A DNA stretch of 64,000 nucleotides from a virus, in the IMG/VR virus record IMGVR_UViG_3300031834_001450, positions 19,335 through 83,334 of that record, one strand, 5' to 3'. This document shows positions 55,432 through 63,975 of this stretch, in pieces. The position numbers and the translations under genes were made by a program. The notes below the pieces were generated by a model. The model was not told the DNA's origin and searched no databases. It saw only the letters and a program-made list of their open reading frames with translations. The number at the start of each line of letters is the position of its first letter. Position 1 is the first letter of the stretch.

Positions 55432-57596
55432 TTTATTTCTCCTTTATCTACATAAAAACTCTTACTTCCTTTTGTATTTTTTAAAAATTCTTTTACTTCT
55501 TCACAATGAGAAATAATAAAAATTTGATAATTTGGTAAGTGTTCTAAAAGAATTTCAAACATATTTACTGCTTTTTCTTCTGAAAGTTGAGAATCTATTT
55601 CATCTAATATCATAAAATTTAATCTATCAAGAGAGGATAAAGCGACTCTAAAACTAAGAGCTAATAAATCTTTTTCACTTCCTGATGCCATACTACATGG
55701 AGTTATACAATCTTGTTCTTTATCAACATAATAAAAATCTATACTATTTTTATCTTGAGAAAAAGTAATAGAATATTTATCATATGCTGATAAAAAGAAA
55801 TAATTCATTTTTTCTTTAATATATTCAGCCCCTTGATCTATTAACCAAGCACTAAAATCTTTATCAAGTACTTGCCTAACTTCTTTTAAAATACTTACCT
55901 TATAAGATATAGAATCAATTAATGAAATTAAACTTTTTATTTTTTGATTATCTTCTTGTTTTTCCTTTTCTATATTTTCATTATAATTAGTAACTCTTTC
56001 TTTTTCTTGTAATTTTTGTTCATATATTATAATTTCTCTATTTAAAATATCATATTTTATTTTATCATAATTTATTGGTTCATCTACTTTTTGAGGTTTT
56101 TTAATATTACTATATTGCTCTTGTAATTTAATAGATGTTTCTATTTTATTTTCTAAATCTTTTATTTGTTCTTTTATATTATTATTATAAATAGTTGTTT
56201 CATTATAGTTTTTAATTCTTTGTTTAAAATTATCTATAGTTCTTCTAAAATCAAAAGTAACTTCTAATTCTTTTTCAACAAAATCAATAAGTAGTTCATC
56301 TAATTCTTTTTGATGATTATCTATATTGTCTTGAATATTTTTTCTTTGTATTTTTATAGTTTCCTGTTCATTAACTAAAGTAGTATATTCTTTTAAGTTT
56401 TCTTTTATTTCTTTAACTTTATTTTTATATTCTAATATTTCTTTTTTACATAATAACAAATCATTTCTTATTTGCTCTATATTACCTTCATAAATAGCAC
56501 CACATGTTGGACATTTTCCTTGTTCTGATAATTGAAAATCTTTTTCAAATTGAATCCTTTCAGATTCAAATCTAATCAATTGTTCTTCAGCTTTTTCTAT
56601 ATCACTATTTTTATATATATAAGGAGATATTTGTTTTAATTGATACTGAGTTAATAATTCATTATTTCTAATTATTCCATCTTTAGCTTTTTTAATTTTA
56701 TCTTTTTTATATAAATATTTTTCATTCTTAGCTAATTGGTTAACTTGTTCTTTTTCTAAATCTATAATTTGATTATTTAAATTATCTATATTAATTTCAG
56801 AATCAATAGTTTTTAATAATTTTTTTAAATTTTCTATTTGTCTTTTAAATCCTAAAATTTGTGCGTCATATATTTCTATCTCTCTATTAGCATTTACATA
56901 AGAAGATAAATCTTTTATGTAAGTATTATAAACTACTGATTGTAATTCATAATTTTTCTTTTCTAATTCTAATATTTCTAATTGTTTTTTTATATCCTCA
57001 ATATTATCAACTGTAGGAACTTCCATAAAATTATATTTTTTTTCTTCAAGTAATTTTAGTTCTCTATCAAATATTCTTATTTCTTCCTGTTGCTTATCTA
57101 TATCAATTTTTATTTCTTCACATACCTCAACAATCTTATCTATACCTAAAATTTCTTTAAGCTTTTTAAGTCTATTAGTTGGAGTATCAAATAATATTTG
57201 AGCTGTTTTACCTTGTTCACTTATAGAGGAATATCTAATAATGTTAGGATCGATTATTTCAGCTAATTTTTTTGTAGCTTCAGAATTTTTATAAATATTA
57301 AAGCTATCATTATTTATAATGAGTTCTTTTTTAGCTGATGCACTAGCAAAAACTTTAATGAGATAATTATCATTATTAATTTCAAATTCCAGTTCAAGAA
57401 AAAACTTCTCACATCCCCATCTTACATACTCAGATATTTTTTCATTAAGATTATCTGTAAGAAGATATTCTATTGCATATAATATAGAAGATTTACCCTC
57501 TCCATTATTACCTGATATAAGATTAACATATTTAGAGGGTTCAATAATTAATTCTTTGATGTTACGAAAATTTTGAATGTATAACTTTTTAATCAT
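55428..57596 (-). CDS. SbcC/Rad50/gp46-like ATPase
   Basis: The 722-residue protein is an SMC-type ATPase: Walker A GNNGEGKSS (30-38), long coiled coils on both sides of a zinc hook CPTCG (362-366), signature MASGSEKDLLALSFRVALSS near 625-650 and Walker B NFMILDEIDSQL. It pairs with the SbcD-like nuclease at 15542-16453 to process DNA ends for recombination and host DNA degradation. The two partner genes are about 40 kb apart, unlike the adjacent pairs in most phages. Confidence 0.9.
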   Translation of the reverse strand: MIKKLYIQNFRNIKELIIEPSKYVNLISGNNGEGKSSILYAIEYLLTDNLNEKISEYVRWGCEKFFLELEFEINNDNYLIKVFASASAKKELIINNDSFNIYKNSEATKKLAEIIDPNIIRYSSISEQGKTAQILFDTPTNRLKKLKEILGIDKIVEVCEEIKIDIDKQQEEIRIFDRELKLLEEKKYNFMEVPTVDNIEDIKKQLEILELEKKNYELQSVVYNTYIKDLSSYVNANREIEIYDAQILGFKRQIENLKKLLKTIDSEINIDNLNNQIIDLEKEQVNQLAKNEKYLYKKDKIKKAKDGIIRNNELLTQYQLKQISPYIYKNSDIEKAEEQLIRFESERIQFEKDFQLSEQGKCPTCGAIYEGNIEQIRNDLLLCKKEILEYKNKVKEIKENLKEYTTLVNEQETIKIQRKNIQDNIDNHQKELDELLIDFVEKELEVTFDFRRTIDNFKQRIKNYNETTIYNNNIKEQIKDLENKIETSIKLQEQYSNIKKPQKVDEPINYDKIKYDILNREIIIYEQKLQEKERVTNYNENIEKEKQEDNQKIKSLISLIDSISYKVSILKEVRQVLDKDFSAWLIDQGAEYIKEKMNYFFLSAYDKYSITFSQDKNSIDFYYVDKEQDCITPCSMASGSEKDLLALSFRVALSSLDRLNFMILDEIDSQLSEEKAVNMFEILLEHLPNYQIFIISHCEEVKEFLKNTKGSKSFYVDKGEIK

Positions 57597-57711
57597 TTAA
57601 TTTCCCTTCTTTAATTATTTCTACTTTATAATCATAATGATATGATTCAGAAACAAATTTAAACTCTGACCCACACTCTTCACAAATGATAATATCTTTT
57701 AAATCAATCAT
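57589..57711 (-). CDS. 40-residue zinc-ribbon peptide
   Basis: ATG 57711 overlaps the previous stop (ATGA) and its own stop overlaps the SbcC-like start by eight bases. MIDLKDIIICEECGSEFKFV continues SESYHYDYKVEIIKEG; one CxxC knuckle and a YHYDY patch. The double overlap strongly supports translation. Confidence 0.55.
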   Translation of the reverse strand: MIDLKDIIICEECGSEFKFVSESYHYDYKVEIIKEGKLND

Positions 57712-57811
57712 ACCATAAATACTTGTACCTGCATATTATTATTACAAATAGGACAAATAAAATGATTGTGAATTATATCACCACACTTTGTTTAATCTCT
57801 TCATATTTCAT
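57708..57811 (-). pseudogene. Small zinc-ribbon frame with a -1 shift
   Basis: ATG 57811 follows AAAAAGGAGAAAATAAG, an excellent ribosome site, and encodes MKYEEIKQSVVI before TAA. In the -1 frame the sequence continues KCGDIIHNHFICPICNNNMQ and ends with TGA overlapping the next ATG. The Cys pattern and end-coupling suggest one intended gene (MKYEEIK then CGDII) with a -1 shift near AAACAAAG, whether programmed, erroneous or broken. Confidence 0.35.
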
Positions 57812-57842: not shown

Positions 57843-57964
57843 TAGAAAGTAAGGGATTCGACCCTTTAAATACCAACTAGTTAGCAATTAGTTAGCAACT
57901 AGTTAGCAATTAGTTAGCAACTAGTTAGCAACTAGTTGCTTTATATCCTTTTGGTCAACTTTCT
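57843..57964 (-). ncRNA. tRNA-like RNA with tandem anticodon-arm-like repeats
   Basis: On the minus strand AGAAAGT (57964-57958) pairs perfectly with ACTTTCT (57850-57844), a 7-bp acceptor stem with A as discriminator. Next to it lies a T-arm-like AAGGGTCGAATCCCTT with a six-base loop, one short of normal. Between them are six 11-base units whose junctions form ACTAG-TTGCTAA-CTAGT, a five-base-pair stem with a seven-base loop, T before GCT and A after, as in a tRNA-Ser(GCU) anticodon arm. A normal D arm is not evident. The element is about 121 nt, too long for a standard tRNA; no CCA is encoded. Confidence 0.45.
57875..57939. repeat. Six tandem 11-nt units
   Basis: Units on the plus strand: AACTAGTTAGC (57875), AATTAGTTAGC (57886), AACTAGTTAGC (57897), AATTAGTTAGC (57908), AACTAGTTAGC (57919), AACTAGTTGC (57930). 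C and T versions alternate, implying duplication of a two-unit block. They lie inside the tRNA-like structure. Confidence 0.85.
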
Positions 57965-59423: not shown

Positions 59424-59561
59424 CTATCTTAATTTACAAAATTCTAATATTGTATTTTTACATTGTGGACAAATAGTATCATCATTTCTACTTATCCAGT
59501 CATATCCACAACTACAAAAAAATTCATACGCTTTTACTAGTTTTTCTTTTTCTTGCTTCAT
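59424..59561 (-). CDS. 45-residue zinc-ribbon protein
   Basis: ATG 59561 overlaps the upstream stop (ATGA). AYEFFCSCGYDWISRNDDTI continues CPQCKNTILEFCKLR: a CxC and a CxxC knuckle form a rubredoxin-type zinc ribbon. It lies directly before RecA. Too short to assign, but composition and overlap support it. Confidence 0.6.
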   Translation of the reverse strand: MKQEKEKLVKAYEFFCSCGYDWISRNDDTICPQCKNTILEFCKLR

Positions 59562-59953
59562 ACAATAACTCCTTCAACTTTTTGTATATATTCTTTTAAT
59601 TTTTCTCTTTCTTGTTCTAAATTATCTATTTCTTCTTCTAGATTCTTTACTGTAATGTTTAATTCTTCAATAAAATAATTTGAATCTTCTACTGTTTCTT
59701 TATAGTTTTTTATTTCTTTTTCTGAATCTTCTACTGTTTCTTTATAGTTTTTTATTTCTTTTTCTTGATCCTTTACTGTAATTTTTAATTCTTCAATAAG
59801 ATATTCTAAATCTTCAATTATAACATCTAACTTTTCTTCTTCATCACCATAGGAATCTATTAATTCCATATAACATTCTATAGTTCCATATAAATCTTTT
59901 TTACCTGATTTAATTTCATTAACTACTTCTTCAATAACTGTATTTAATATCAT
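59558..59953 (-). CDS. 131-residue coiled-coil protein with internal duplication
   Basis: A highly acidic protein, coiled coil from about residue 45 to the end. It contains two copies of KEIKNYKETVEDSE (14 residues) encoded by an exact 42-base tandem repeat. Overlaps with neighbours on both sides (ATGA) show a coupled operon ahead of RecA. Function unknown. Confidence 0.55.
   Translation of the reverse strand: MILNTVIEEVVNEIKSGKKDLYGTIECYMELIDSYGDEEEKLDVIIEDLEYLIEELKITVKDQEKEIKNYKETVEDSEKEIKNYKETVEDSNYFIEELNITVKNLEEEIDNLEQEREKLKEYIQKVEGVIV
59682..59765. repeat. 42-bp tandem duplication inside the coiled-coil gene
   Basis: Two adjacent copies of a 42-base unit beginning GAATCTTCTACTG (59682-59723 and 59724-59765) are identical or nearly so, which points to a recent in-frame duplication. 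Confidence 0.8.
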
Positions 59954-60303: not shown

Positions 60304-60322
60304 GCAATCTCTTTAGAGTTGC
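60304..60322. repeat. Right-end hairpin of the IscB element
   Basis: GCAATCTC and GAGTTGC form a seven-pair stem with one bulged T and loop TTTA. The iscB stop codon TAA lies within the loop and stem. Confidence 0.6.
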
Positions 60323-61533
60323 ATAGGAACAGCACATACCTCCATTATATAATTTTTTCTTGCACTAATTCTCTCTAAATATTTCTTTGCATTCCAACTT
60401 TTATTAAAAATATTTCCTAAAATATCCATTATAACAAATGCTCCTGAACTTCTTTTCCCCTTAATAAAACCAATACCTTCGGGGGTTTTTACTTTGTCAA
60501 ATTTCTTAAATCCAAATAATTTTCCAGTTGGTATTTTCTTTTCACTTCTAATACCCTTCGTTTGTTGATAGTCACCTTTAGCTACATTTTTCTTAATGAA
60601 ATAATAATTCAAATCTTTAATTATTTCACTATCACTACAACAAATAGCAATAGCATCATTACAATGTGATTTAGATAATTGCAATATTTGTTCTCTCTTG
60701 AATTTAGTTTCATACCCAAAAGTTTCAACAAAATCACCAAATTTCTTTTTAAGTTGTGATTTGGTAATCCCAATTTCAGTAGCATGTTTAGTTATAGATT
60801 TTTTACCTTTTATTTCAAATTCACCTTTGTGTAATTTGTCATGACAACCTTCACATAAAGTAATTAAATTTTCTGGAGAATCTGTTCCCCCATTACTTCT
60901 AAAAATAATATGATGAACATGCAGTTTACTTTTTTTAGTTTTACAATGTTGACATGTAAATCCATCTCTATCGAGAATAAACGCCTTTACATTATAAAAT
61001 CCTTTCTGTTGCCCTTTCTGATAATCTTTAACTTCAGAATTACTTATTTTATGAATATCAAAACTTGCTAATTCTAAAATCCATTTAGAGACAGGGAGTA
61101 ACTTTTCAATAAATTTCTTTTCTCTTAAATGAGAATTTAATTTGCTTAAAAGTGAAGGAGCAAGTCTATCTTTTCTAAGGGAATTTGCTCGGTTATTCCA
61201 TCTTGCTTCTCTGTATCTTGTTTTTCTTCCTCTTCTGTTTCTTCTGTACATTTTTCTTTGTTCCATCTTTTTTGAAACATCTTGACGAATAAACGTTTCT
61301 GATTTGTACAAAACTTTACCATTTGAAATACAAGCTGTTCCAATAACCTTGCTTCCTGTGTCCATTCCTGCAATCACTTCTTGTTTATAGTTTGTTGTCT
61401 CTATTAACATTTTAATAGTGAATGGCGTTTTTTTAATTGCTTTAGCTTTACCTTCTTTTAACAATATTCTTGCTATTGATGGTTTTGTGGGCATTAAAGG
61501 TTTCCCTTCTTTGTTTAAAACATAAACTAACAT
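60313..61533 (-). CDS. iscB: IscB RNA-guided nuclease (PLMP, RuvC, HNH)
   Basis: I choose ATG 61533, ten bases after AAAGGAGG; a longer frame from 61596 lacks a ribosome site. The 406-residue protein has the PLMP domain (GKPLMPTKPSIARILL, 10-25), RuvC-I with Asp58 in AGMDTGSK, an arginine-rich bridge helix (91-115), RuvC-II with Glu154 in LELASFDIHK, the HNH domain with Cys194, Cys197, His207/208, Asn222, Cys227 and Cys230, and RuvC-III with His290 and Asp293 in SHCNDAIAI. All catalytic residues are present. IscB uses an omega-RNA guide and is the ancestor type of Cas9; it helps its element persist. Confidence 0.92.
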   Translation of the reverse strand: MLVYVLNKEGKPLMPTKPSIARILLKEGKAKAIKKTPFTIKMLIETTNYKQEVIAGMDTGSKVIGTACISNGKVLYKSETFIRQDVSKKMEQRKMYRRNRRGRKTRYREARWNNRANSLRKDRLAPSLLSKLNSHLREKKFIEKLLPVSKWILELASFDIHKISNSEVKDYQKGQQKGFYNVKAFILDRDGFTCQHCKTKKSKLHVHHIIFRSNGGTDSPENLITLCEGCHDKLHKGEFEIKGKKSITKHATEIGITKSQLKKKFGDFVETFGYETKFKREQILQLSKSHCNDAIAICCSDSEIIKDLNYYFIKKNVAKGDYQQTKGIRSEKKIPTGKLFGFKKFDKVKTPEGIGFIKGKRSSGAFVIMDILGNIFNKSWNAKKYLERISARKNYIMEVCAVPMQL

Positions 61534-61795
61534 CTTAGTTAAATCCTCCTTTCGGGTAATGTGTATCAAAAGCATTGAGGTTACTTTTGAATCCAACGTC
61601 CTCTCGAAGAGATGATGAAGAGTTTAACGACATAAGCACTATTCCTAACACATCAGAATTGTTTAACTTATATCCTAAGAGGTCAGAACTGAGGCGACAT
61701 CCTAACGTTACTATTTTCTTCTCATCGTTTATCAAACTTTCTCCCCCATTTGATCTTCTGGTAAACAAGCATCTTTAATTTTAAATTTTAAAGAT
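61534..61795 (-). ncRNA. Probable IscB omega-RNA
   Basis: The region between the left-end hairpin and iscB, on the same strand, is where IscB omega-RNAs are encoded. Here it is markedly less AT-rich than the rest of the window and can fold: TCTCTTCGAGAGG near 61605-61615 makes a tetraloop hairpin, and GATGTCGCCTC with GTTCTGACCTC forms a structured core near 61680-61700. Its guide would be read from the flank beyond 61813. A 77-residue frame overlapping it is probably not translated. Confidence 0.6.
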
Positions 61796-61813
61796 ACAAC
61801 TCTTTAGAGTTGT
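61796..61813. repeat. Left-end hairpin of the IscB element
   Basis: ACAACTC (61796-61802), TTTA loop, GAGTTGT (61807-61813), a perfect seven-pair stem. With flanking ATAC on one side and GTG on the other it is the exact inverse of the TnpB element end at 62823-62840. Confidence 0.65.
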
Positions 61814-61826
61814 GTTTATTTACTAT

Positions 61827-62840: not shown

Positions 62841-62960
62841 ATCTTCCTGCTCTGAGTGTCTAATAACTTGCTCATATCTAACAGGCGTTAATTTCCTCTG
62901 TTCCGGAGGTATTTAATTTTAAAAGTGGGTAATCCACTTTAGTTAAACCAAAATTCTTAA
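62823..62960 (-). ncRNA. Possible TnpB guide RNA (reRNA/omega-RNA) scaffold
   Basis: TnpB guide RNAs come from the end of the tnpB gene and the adjacent right end. Here the DNA from about 62960 to 62841 contains ACCTCCGGAACAGAGG and CACTCAGAGCAGGAAGA, less AT-rich than the surroundings, before the terminal hairpin. The guide would extend into 62822 and below, which is the truncated gene. Positions are approximate. Confidence 0.4.
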
Positions 62961-63975
62961 TATTTATAGCAGCATTAATATCTCTATCATGAGTTTCACC
63001 ACAATCACAAGTCCATTGTCTATCTGATAATGTCAAATTATTATTTAACATTCCGCAAGAATGACATAATTTAGTTGATGGGTCAAAACGACCAATAGAG
63101 ATTATGGTTTTACCATACCAATTAGCTTTGTAATTTAATTGTCTAACAAACTCAGACCAGCTAACATCACTTATTGCTTTAGCTAATTTGTGATTTTTAA
63201 CCATATTAGATACTGCTAAATCCTCAATACAGATAGTTTGGTTTTCACTAATTATTTTTGAAGAAAGTTTGTGCAAGAAGTCCTTACGCTGATTAGTAAT
63301 TTTTTGATGAGTTCTTGCTACTTTAATTCTACTTTTATTTTTATTATTACTTCCTTTTGTTTTATGACTATATTTTCTTTGAGCTTTCTTTAACTTCTTT
63401 TCTGATTTCTTCAAGTGTTTAGGATTAGAAATCTTTTCTCCATTACTTGTTACTAAAAAATCCTTAATTCCCAAGTCAATACCAATAGTAGTTTTCTCGT
63501 TTACTGTCTTTGGTTCAATTATATTATCTGTTGTCTCAACAAGAATAATAGCAAAATATTGGCCAGAAGGATTTTTAGAAATAGTTAATGTTTTTTCTTT
63601 TCCTTCGTATAATCTGTGTTGAATTATTTTAATTCCTTCTTTTAATTTAGGAATATATAATATTCCTTCTTCTATTTTATAATGTTGAGGAATTTGAAAA
63701 CTTTTATGATTATCGTGTTTCTTTTTAAATTTAGGAAAACCCTTTTTATTACGGAAAAAATTCTTAAAAGCTATATCTAAATTTCTCATTTCCATTTGAA
63801 GAGATTGAGAATTTATTTCATTTAACCAAGGATATTCTTTTTTGAGTTCTGGTATTTTGTTGTTTAATTCAATCCATGATATACTTTTCTTGGTATTAGT
63901 ATAATGTTTAGTTTTAGCGTCAAGACCCCAATTATATAAGAAACGTGTAGAACCAAAGTGTTTAGCTAAAAACAC
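62878..63975 (-). CDS. tnpB: TnpB RNA-guided nuclease, N-terminus interrupted by a stop
   Basis: The visible 365 residues contain Asp167 in TIGIDLGIKD (RuvC-I), Glu251 in TICIEDLAVS (RuvC-II), a zinc finger with Cys304, Cys307, Cys323 and Cys325, and Asp332 in HDRDINAAIN (RuvC-III). The frame opens at GTG 63975, but homology continues upstream: I, TAA, P, N, K, E, Q, K at 63999-63976, where TnpB proteins read YPNKEQK. So the Tyr codon is TAA (63994-63996). The N-terminal strand is missing unless GTG is used. The nuclease core is intact, but full activity is doubtful. Confidence 0.8.
   Translation of the reverse strand: MFLAKHFGSTRFLYNWGLDAKTKHYTNTKKSISWIELNNKIPELKKEYPWLNEINSQSLQMEMRNLDIAFKNFFRNKKGFPKFKKKHDNHKSFQIPQHYKIEEGILYIPKLKEGIKIIQHRLYEGKEKTLTISKNPSGQYFAIILVETTDNIIEPKTVNEKTTIGIDLGIKDFLVTSNGEKISNPKHLKKSEKKLKKAQRKYSHKTKGSNNKNKSRIKVARTHQKITNQRKDFLHKLSSKIISENQTICIEDLAVSNMVKNHKLAKAISDVSWSEFVRQLNYKANWYGKTIISIGRFDPSTKLCHSCGMLNNNLTLSDRQWTCDCGETHDRDINAAINIKNFGLTKVDYPLLKLNTSGTEEINAC

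What the first reader, a model, noticed from the sequence alone, without database searches (positions are those of the whole stretch)
57843..57964. tRNA-like RNA with six tandem anticodon-arm-like units
A perfect acceptor stem and T-arm-like sequence enclose 11-base repeats. Each unit junction can form a five-pair stem with loop TTGCTAA, where GCT is in the anticodon place after T33 and before A37. With two units the RNA would be normal tRNA length (about 78 nt), so the array looks like an expansion inside a tRNA-Ser(GCU)-like gene. It might be a decoy for an anticodon nuclease (each unit presents an anticodon loop), a degraded tRNA, or a slippage product.
Basis: partly seen in the sequence, partly recalled or inferred. 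Interest (0 to 1): 0.75.

Follow-up and report, generated by a model that had tools for sequence, protein, structure and literature searches.

The report
Decayed phage serine-tRNA with repeat expansion
A bacteriophage carries the remains of a serine transfer-RNA gene in which an 11-base unit was copied several times, probably by DNA slippage; it most likely no longer works as a normal tRNA, though a working tRNA with an oversized side arm cannot be excluded.

Summary
On the minus strand at 57964-57843 lies a tRNA-like RNA: perfect 7-bp acceptor stem, 5-bp T stem, GCU anticodon loop and an 11-nt tandem array (Rfam tRNA 27.6 bits, E 4.5e-5 per genome, just under the cut-off; the only tRNA match in the 83-kb record). 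The detail and reading need correction. There are five TTGCTAA loops, not six, and only the first makes a perfect five-pair anticodon arm. The other four junctions each carry an A.C mismatch and have near-zero pairing probability. The RNA folds as a type II (serine-like) cloverleaf with ONE anticodon arm, the rest forming one long hairpin in a 53-nt variable region. The D stem is broken (1 of 4 pairs) and the T loop has 6 nt instead of 7. The next gene is frameshifted. A syntenic relative (about 72% nt identity, RecA 86%) has no tRNA there and different odd tRNAs elsewhere. Best reading: a decayed tRNA-Ser(GCU) gene whose anticodon/variable-arm junction expanded by slippage. A working tRNA with a giant variable arm is the main rival. 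An anticodon-nuclease decoy presenting many arms is poorly supported.

The parts
57843..57964 (-). tRNA-like core, 122 nt (RNA 5' end at 57964)
   Evidence: Rfam RF00005 27.6 bits, E 9e-4 / 4.5e-5 per record
57958..57964 (-). acceptor stem 5' half AGAAAGU
   Evidence: pairs 7/7 with 57844-57850; pair probability 0.84-0.999
57844..57850 (-). acceptor stem 3' half ACUUUCU, followed by A at 57843 in the discriminator place; no encoded CCA
57937..57957 (-). D-arm region UGACCAAAAGGAUAUAAAGCA; loop GG kept, D stem 1 of 4 pairs
   Evidence: sequence read directly
57920..57936 (-). the one intact anticodon arm ACUAG-UUGCUAA-CUAGU, anticodon GCU at 57927-57929
   Evidence: five pairs with probability about 0.999
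57867..57919 (-). 53-nt variable region made of the remaining repeat units; predicted single long hairpin
   Evidence: MFE structure, -43.7 kcal/mol for the core
57870..57935 (-). 11-nt tandem array: CTAGTTGCTAA, CTAGTTGCTAA, CTAATTGCTAA, CTAGTTGCTAA, CTAATTGCTAA, partial CTAGTTGGTAT
   Evidence: TRF score 114; 11-nt register 51/58, 22-nt register 43/47 matches
57851..57866 (-). T arm AAGGG-UCGAAU-CCCUU, 5/5 stem, 6-nt loop
57591..57811 (-). adjacent zinc-ribbon-like gene (CPIC...CEEC) split over three frames, starting about 30 nt after the tRNA-like 3' end
   Evidence: three-frame translation

Best explanation
This is the remnant of a phage-carried type II tRNA-Ser(GCU) gene. Its anticodon arm and the start of its variable arm happened to form an 11-nt repeat (a near-palindrome AACTAGTT plus GCT). 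Replication slippage, including at least one likely 22-nt step, added about three units there, growing the variable region from about 20 to 53 nt. The gene has also lost most D-stem pairing and one T-loop nucleotide, so it most likely no longer yields a translating tRNA. Shown: the cloverleaf remnants, the array, the single intact anticodon arm in the predicted fold, absence from one syntenic relative. Inferred: the ancestral state, the slippage steps, the loss of function.
For: Whole-span tRNA covariance match with the array as an insert. Cloverleaf MFE with one anticodon arm and one long variable hairpin. With three units fewer ARAGORN reads a 90-92 nt tRNA-Ser(gct) with a proper variable arm, though only when the T loop is also set to 7 nt; with four units fewer it reads tRNA-Ser(gct) even with the 6-nt T loop. 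GGAGAG order of unit types and better 22-nt than 11-nt register (43/47 v 51/58) fit a two-unit duplication. Broken D stem, 6-nt T loop, no call by ARAGORN. Neighbour gene frameshifted. No counterpart between recA and sbcC in relative G001, where that interval holds 3.4 kb of other genes. No other array of this design followed by a T-loop motif in the viral collection: the single pattern hit lies inside a glutaredoxin-like gene.
Against: The acceptor stem is perfectly paired (7-9 bp), which a long-decayed gene need not keep. The mismatches leave exactly the anticodon arm in the right place intact (1 of 15 placements of two changed units would do so). AGU/AGC are 30% of the serine codons counted (202 of 681), so the tRNA would have use. 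Only one relative was found. The single-base T-loop loss could be a sequencing error.
Confidence: 0.62

Rival explanations
1. A working, diverged tRNA-Ser(GCU) with a giant variable arm: the first unit pair forms the anticodon arm, the rest a roughly 46-nt hairpin, possibly making it a poor substrate for host nucleases that cut the variable loop or anticodon loop.
For: Fold has the type II layout. Engineered tRNAs whose variable arm carries extra hairpins can stay active in E. coli (PMC7590224). Mycobacteriophages carry tRNA-Ser(gct), read as one not targeted by nucleases (PMC10264068), and T5 tRNA-Tyr resists variable-loop cleavage through a distinctive variable loop (PMC13096335).
Against: T loop of 6 nt, D stem broken, A not G in the discriminator place; covariance score just below cut-off. 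Absent from the relative.
Confidence: 0.18
2. Anticodon-nuclease decoy: an RNA displaying five GCU anticodon loops to soak up a host nuclease.
For: Five identical UUGCUAA loops inside a tRNA-like frame. The idea that a phage tRNA may act as a decoy exists in print (PMC13096335).
Against: Four of five arms have an A.C mismatch and pairing probability about 0; the structure with three tandem arms is -15.1 v -43.7 kcal/mol for the MFE. Not conserved in the relative.
Confidence: 0.05
3. A DNA element: 11-bp-spaced near-palindromes AACTAGTT as operator, iteron or partition site, the tRNA likeness being incidental or a landing place.
For: One-turn spacing; other viral contigs hold 11-bp arrays with the same heptamer.
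Against: Those arrays lie in no tRNA-like frame in the flanks read and no tRNA was called in those loci, and their number was not compared with a control word. The array sits exactly at the anticodon/variable junction of a significant tRNA match.
Confidence: 0.07
4. Not a tRNA at all: a chance AT-rich inverted repeat around a simple array.
For: Score is under Rfam's cut-off; acceptor plus T-arm likeness occurs 15 times in 200 simulated windows.
Against: E 4.5e-5 for the record, plus correct anticodon loop and D-loop GG in the right order.
Confidence: 0.06

Closest known systems
Phage-encoded tRNA-Ser(GCU), type II
   Same: Anticodon GCU with U33 and A37, acceptor and T stems, long variable region
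   Different: 122 nt rather than about 90; 53-nt variable region; 6-nt T loop; broken D stem
Degenerate tRNA genes (tRNA pseudogenes)
   Same: Partial cloverleaf, below covariance cut-off, not called by ARAGORN
   Different: Carries an in-register expansion of the anticodon/variable-arm junction; acceptor stem still perfect
Engineered tRNAs with hairpin inserts in the variable arm (PMC7590224)
   Same: Extra hairpin placed in the variable arm of a long-variable-arm tRNA
   Different: Those were designed on allo-tRNA frames and tested; this is natural and untested
Phage tRNAs resistant to variable-loop nucleases (T5 tRNA-Tyr; PMC13096335)
   Same: Altered variable region in a phage tRNA
   Different: Function there is shown by experiment; here it is only a possibility

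Membership tests
tRNA (Rfam RF00005) | score at or above curated cut-off (29 bits) | tested here: not met
   27.6 bits
tRNA (Rfam RF00005) | 7-bp acceptor and 5-bp T stem | tested here: met
tRNA (Rfam RF00005) | 7-nt T loop | tested here: not met
   6-nt loop UCGAAU
tRNA (Rfam RF00005) | D stem of 3-4 pairs | tested here: not met
   1 of 4 pairs in the expected register (sequence)
tRNA-Ser, type II | anticodon arm with 5 pairs, 7-nt loop, serine anticodon | tested here: met
   ACUAG-UUGCUAA-CUAGU, P about 0.999
tRNA-Ser, type II | long variable arm of ordinary size | tested here: not met
   53 nt; 68 tRNA matches of two bacterial genomes span 71-88 nt in total length
tRNA-Ser, type II | G73 recognised by SerRS | tested here: not met
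   A follows the acceptor stem; G73 as identity element from PMC7609411
anticodon-nuclease decoy with several arms | each unit folds as an anticodon arm | tested here: not met
   4 of 5 junctions mismatched, P about 0
tRNA-Ser, type II | expression, processing, serylation | not testable with these tools
   needs infected cells

The most novel reading that the evidence does not exclude
A natural, working phage tRNA-Ser whose variable arm grew by 11-nt steps into a giant hairpin, giving a tunable way to escape tRNA-cutting host defences.
Probability: 0.1. Interest if true: 0.7.

Novelty: new variant of a known kind. Interest (0 to 1): 0.33.

Why it matters
If decayed, it documents an unusual path of tRNA-gene decay: repeat expansion at the anticodon/variable-arm junction, which the standard tRNA finder used here misses. 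If active, it would show that a natural tRNA can carry a variable region more than twice the usual size and would link slippage to escape from variable-loop or anticodon nucleases.

Tried and rejected
Exact-array scan of viral contigs: none. Three-unit TTGCTAA pattern: 14 contigs, arrays with no tRNA frame seen in the flanks and no tRNA called. Two units plus T-loop pattern: one hit, inside a glutaredoxin-like gene. RecA and SbcC single-protein scans: nothing; RecA alignment: 80 loci at 37-44% identity, no helpful synteny. DNA searches of phage and plasmid records: only two chance 22-nt matches. IscB used to guess a host: nearest copies in Methanosarcina, so uninformative for a RecA-bearing phage. 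Possible kinship of the array with the 12-bp NQVx repeat gene in the relative's recA-sbcC interval: best match 8 of 11, reached by 16% of random 11-mers, rejected. RNA ligase of T4 type: no match, but the control also rang nowhere, so uninformative. Assembly error: considered; the array (66 nt) is shorter than ordinary reads and its units differ, so it is unlikely, but the missing T-loop base could be one.

Full report
What is there. On the minus strand at 57964-57843 the sequence reads AGAAAGU-UGACCAAAAGGAUAUAAAGCA-ACUAGUUGCUAACUAGU-(53 nt)-AAGGGUCGAAUCCCUU-ACUUUCU-A. The whole span matches the Rfam tRNA model at 27.6 bits (gathering 29), E 9e-4 against all families in 401 nt and 4.5e-5 for tRNA in the full 83,334-base virus record, where it is the only tRNA match. 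ARAGORN finds no tRNA in the window or in the other 19 kb. A crude scan for acceptor plus T arm alone would find 15 hits in 200 simulated windows, so the covariance match, not the stems alone, carries the case.

The array. Five full 11-nt units and a partial sixth run from 57935 to 57870: unit types G, G, A, G, A, then G in the partial one (CTAG or CTAA before TTGCTAA). It is the second strongest tandem repeat row in the window by score. Matching at 22 nt (43/47) is better than at 11 nt (51/58), which fits a two-unit duplication.

The fold. Only the first junction gives a perfect five-pair arm with loop UUGCUAA; all its pairs have probability about 0.999. The other four each hold an A.C mismatch and have probability about 0. 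The minimum-energy structure (-43.7 kcal/mol) is acceptor stem, one anticodon arm, one long hairpin in the variable region, and T arm; a structure with three tandem arms reaches only -15.1. In that minimum the anticodon stem is drawn longer than five pairs, with U32/U33 and A37/A38 also paired and extra pairs below the stem, so the isolated-RNA fold is a guide and not a tRNA model. Dinucleotide shuffles give -24.5 +/- 3.4 for the slightly longer stretch (-46.4), largely because the unit is nearly self-complementary; the plus strand also folds well. So the layout is that of a type II (serine) tRNA with an oversized variable region, not a string of anticodon arms.

Decay marks. The T loop has 6 nt, the D stem keeps 1 of 4 pairs, A stands where serine tRNAs have G73, and no CCA is encoded. 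The tRNA matches in two bacterial genomes span 71-88 nt against 122 here. As a diagnostic, versions with fewer units were given to ARAGORN: with four fewer it reads tRNA-Ser(gct) as is; with three fewer it does so, with a proper 6-bp variable arm, only if the T loop has 7 nt. The ancestor was thus probably an ordinary tRNA-Ser of about 90 nt; this is inference. The next gene, a zinc-ribbon-like ORF at 57811-57591, is split over three frames.

Relatives. One syntenic relative was found, G001 (IMGVR_UViG_3300032397_000003, 155,573 bases): RecA 86%, NrdD 81%, helicase 70%, SbcC 54% identical, about 72% at DNA level across the window. Its recA-sbcC interval holds 3.4 kb of other ORFs and no tRNA-like RNA. 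Its two ARAGORN calls are elsewhere and of other kinds: one with an 8-nt anticodon loop, one tRNA-Met-like. The element is therefore not conserved at this place in the one relative available. A 99.8% identical fragment (L121) does not reach the locus. In the whole viral collection only one stretch fits two tandem TGCTAA in 11-nt register followed by TCGAATC, and that is inside a glutaredoxin-like gene.

Interpretation. Slippage-expanded, decaying tRNA-Ser(GCU) is favoured (0.62). The main rival is a working tRNA with a giant variable arm: engineered hairpin inserts in variable arms can be tolerated (PMC7590224), mycobacteriophages carry tRNA-Ser(gct) (PMC10264068), and a distinctive variable loop protects T5 tRNA-Tyr from cleavage (PMC13096335). 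AGY codons make up 30% of serine codons counted here, so a use exists. A multi-arm decoy is unlikely because the arms are not predicted to form. No paper found in the held library describes a tRNA with such an array; the library is partial and only titles, abstracts and searched passages were read.

Limits. One genome, one relative, both records possibly incomplete, no expression data, and folding energies of isolated RNA without modifications.

Noticed in passing
L123:1501-1578 (G001:69302-69379): Relative phage has a tRNA with perfect acceptor and T arm but an 8-nt anticodon loop GATACAAA (ARAGORN 'taca'), over the Rfam cut-off (30.6 bits).
   Followed up: partly
L123:1819-1896: tRNA-Met-like RNA (cat) in the relative with an atypical T loop TGCAGTT and no GG in the D loop; missed by the Rfam tRNA model search.
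   Followed up: partly
L122:1628-3280: 550-aa ORF in the relative's recA-sbcC interval with a long array of in-frame 12-bp repeats (NQVx).
   Followed up: partly
60313-61823 (-): IscB-type ORF (RRXRR + HNH) with a HEARO/omega RNA directly upstream (61593-61823, 83.4 bits); nearest genome copies 63-66% identical, in Methanosarcina and other archaeal records.
   Followed up: partly
62878-63975 (-): TnpB/OrfB-type gene (IS605 family); another TnpB-like ORF at L003:2951-4177.
   Followed up: no
57591-57811 (-): Zinc-ribbon-like gene broken by two frameshifts, next to the tRNA-like element.
   Followed up: partly
59681-59779: 42-bp tandem repeat (score 170) inside the coiled-coil-like ORF 59558-59953.
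   Followed up: no
L009, L016, L017 (and L010, L011): Unrelated viral contigs with 11-bp arrays of TTGCTAA in AT-rich stretches; in L009/L016/L017 the array follows a second, 10-bp pyrimidine-rich array (TTCTATTCTT), which looks like a shared non-coding element.
   Followed up: no
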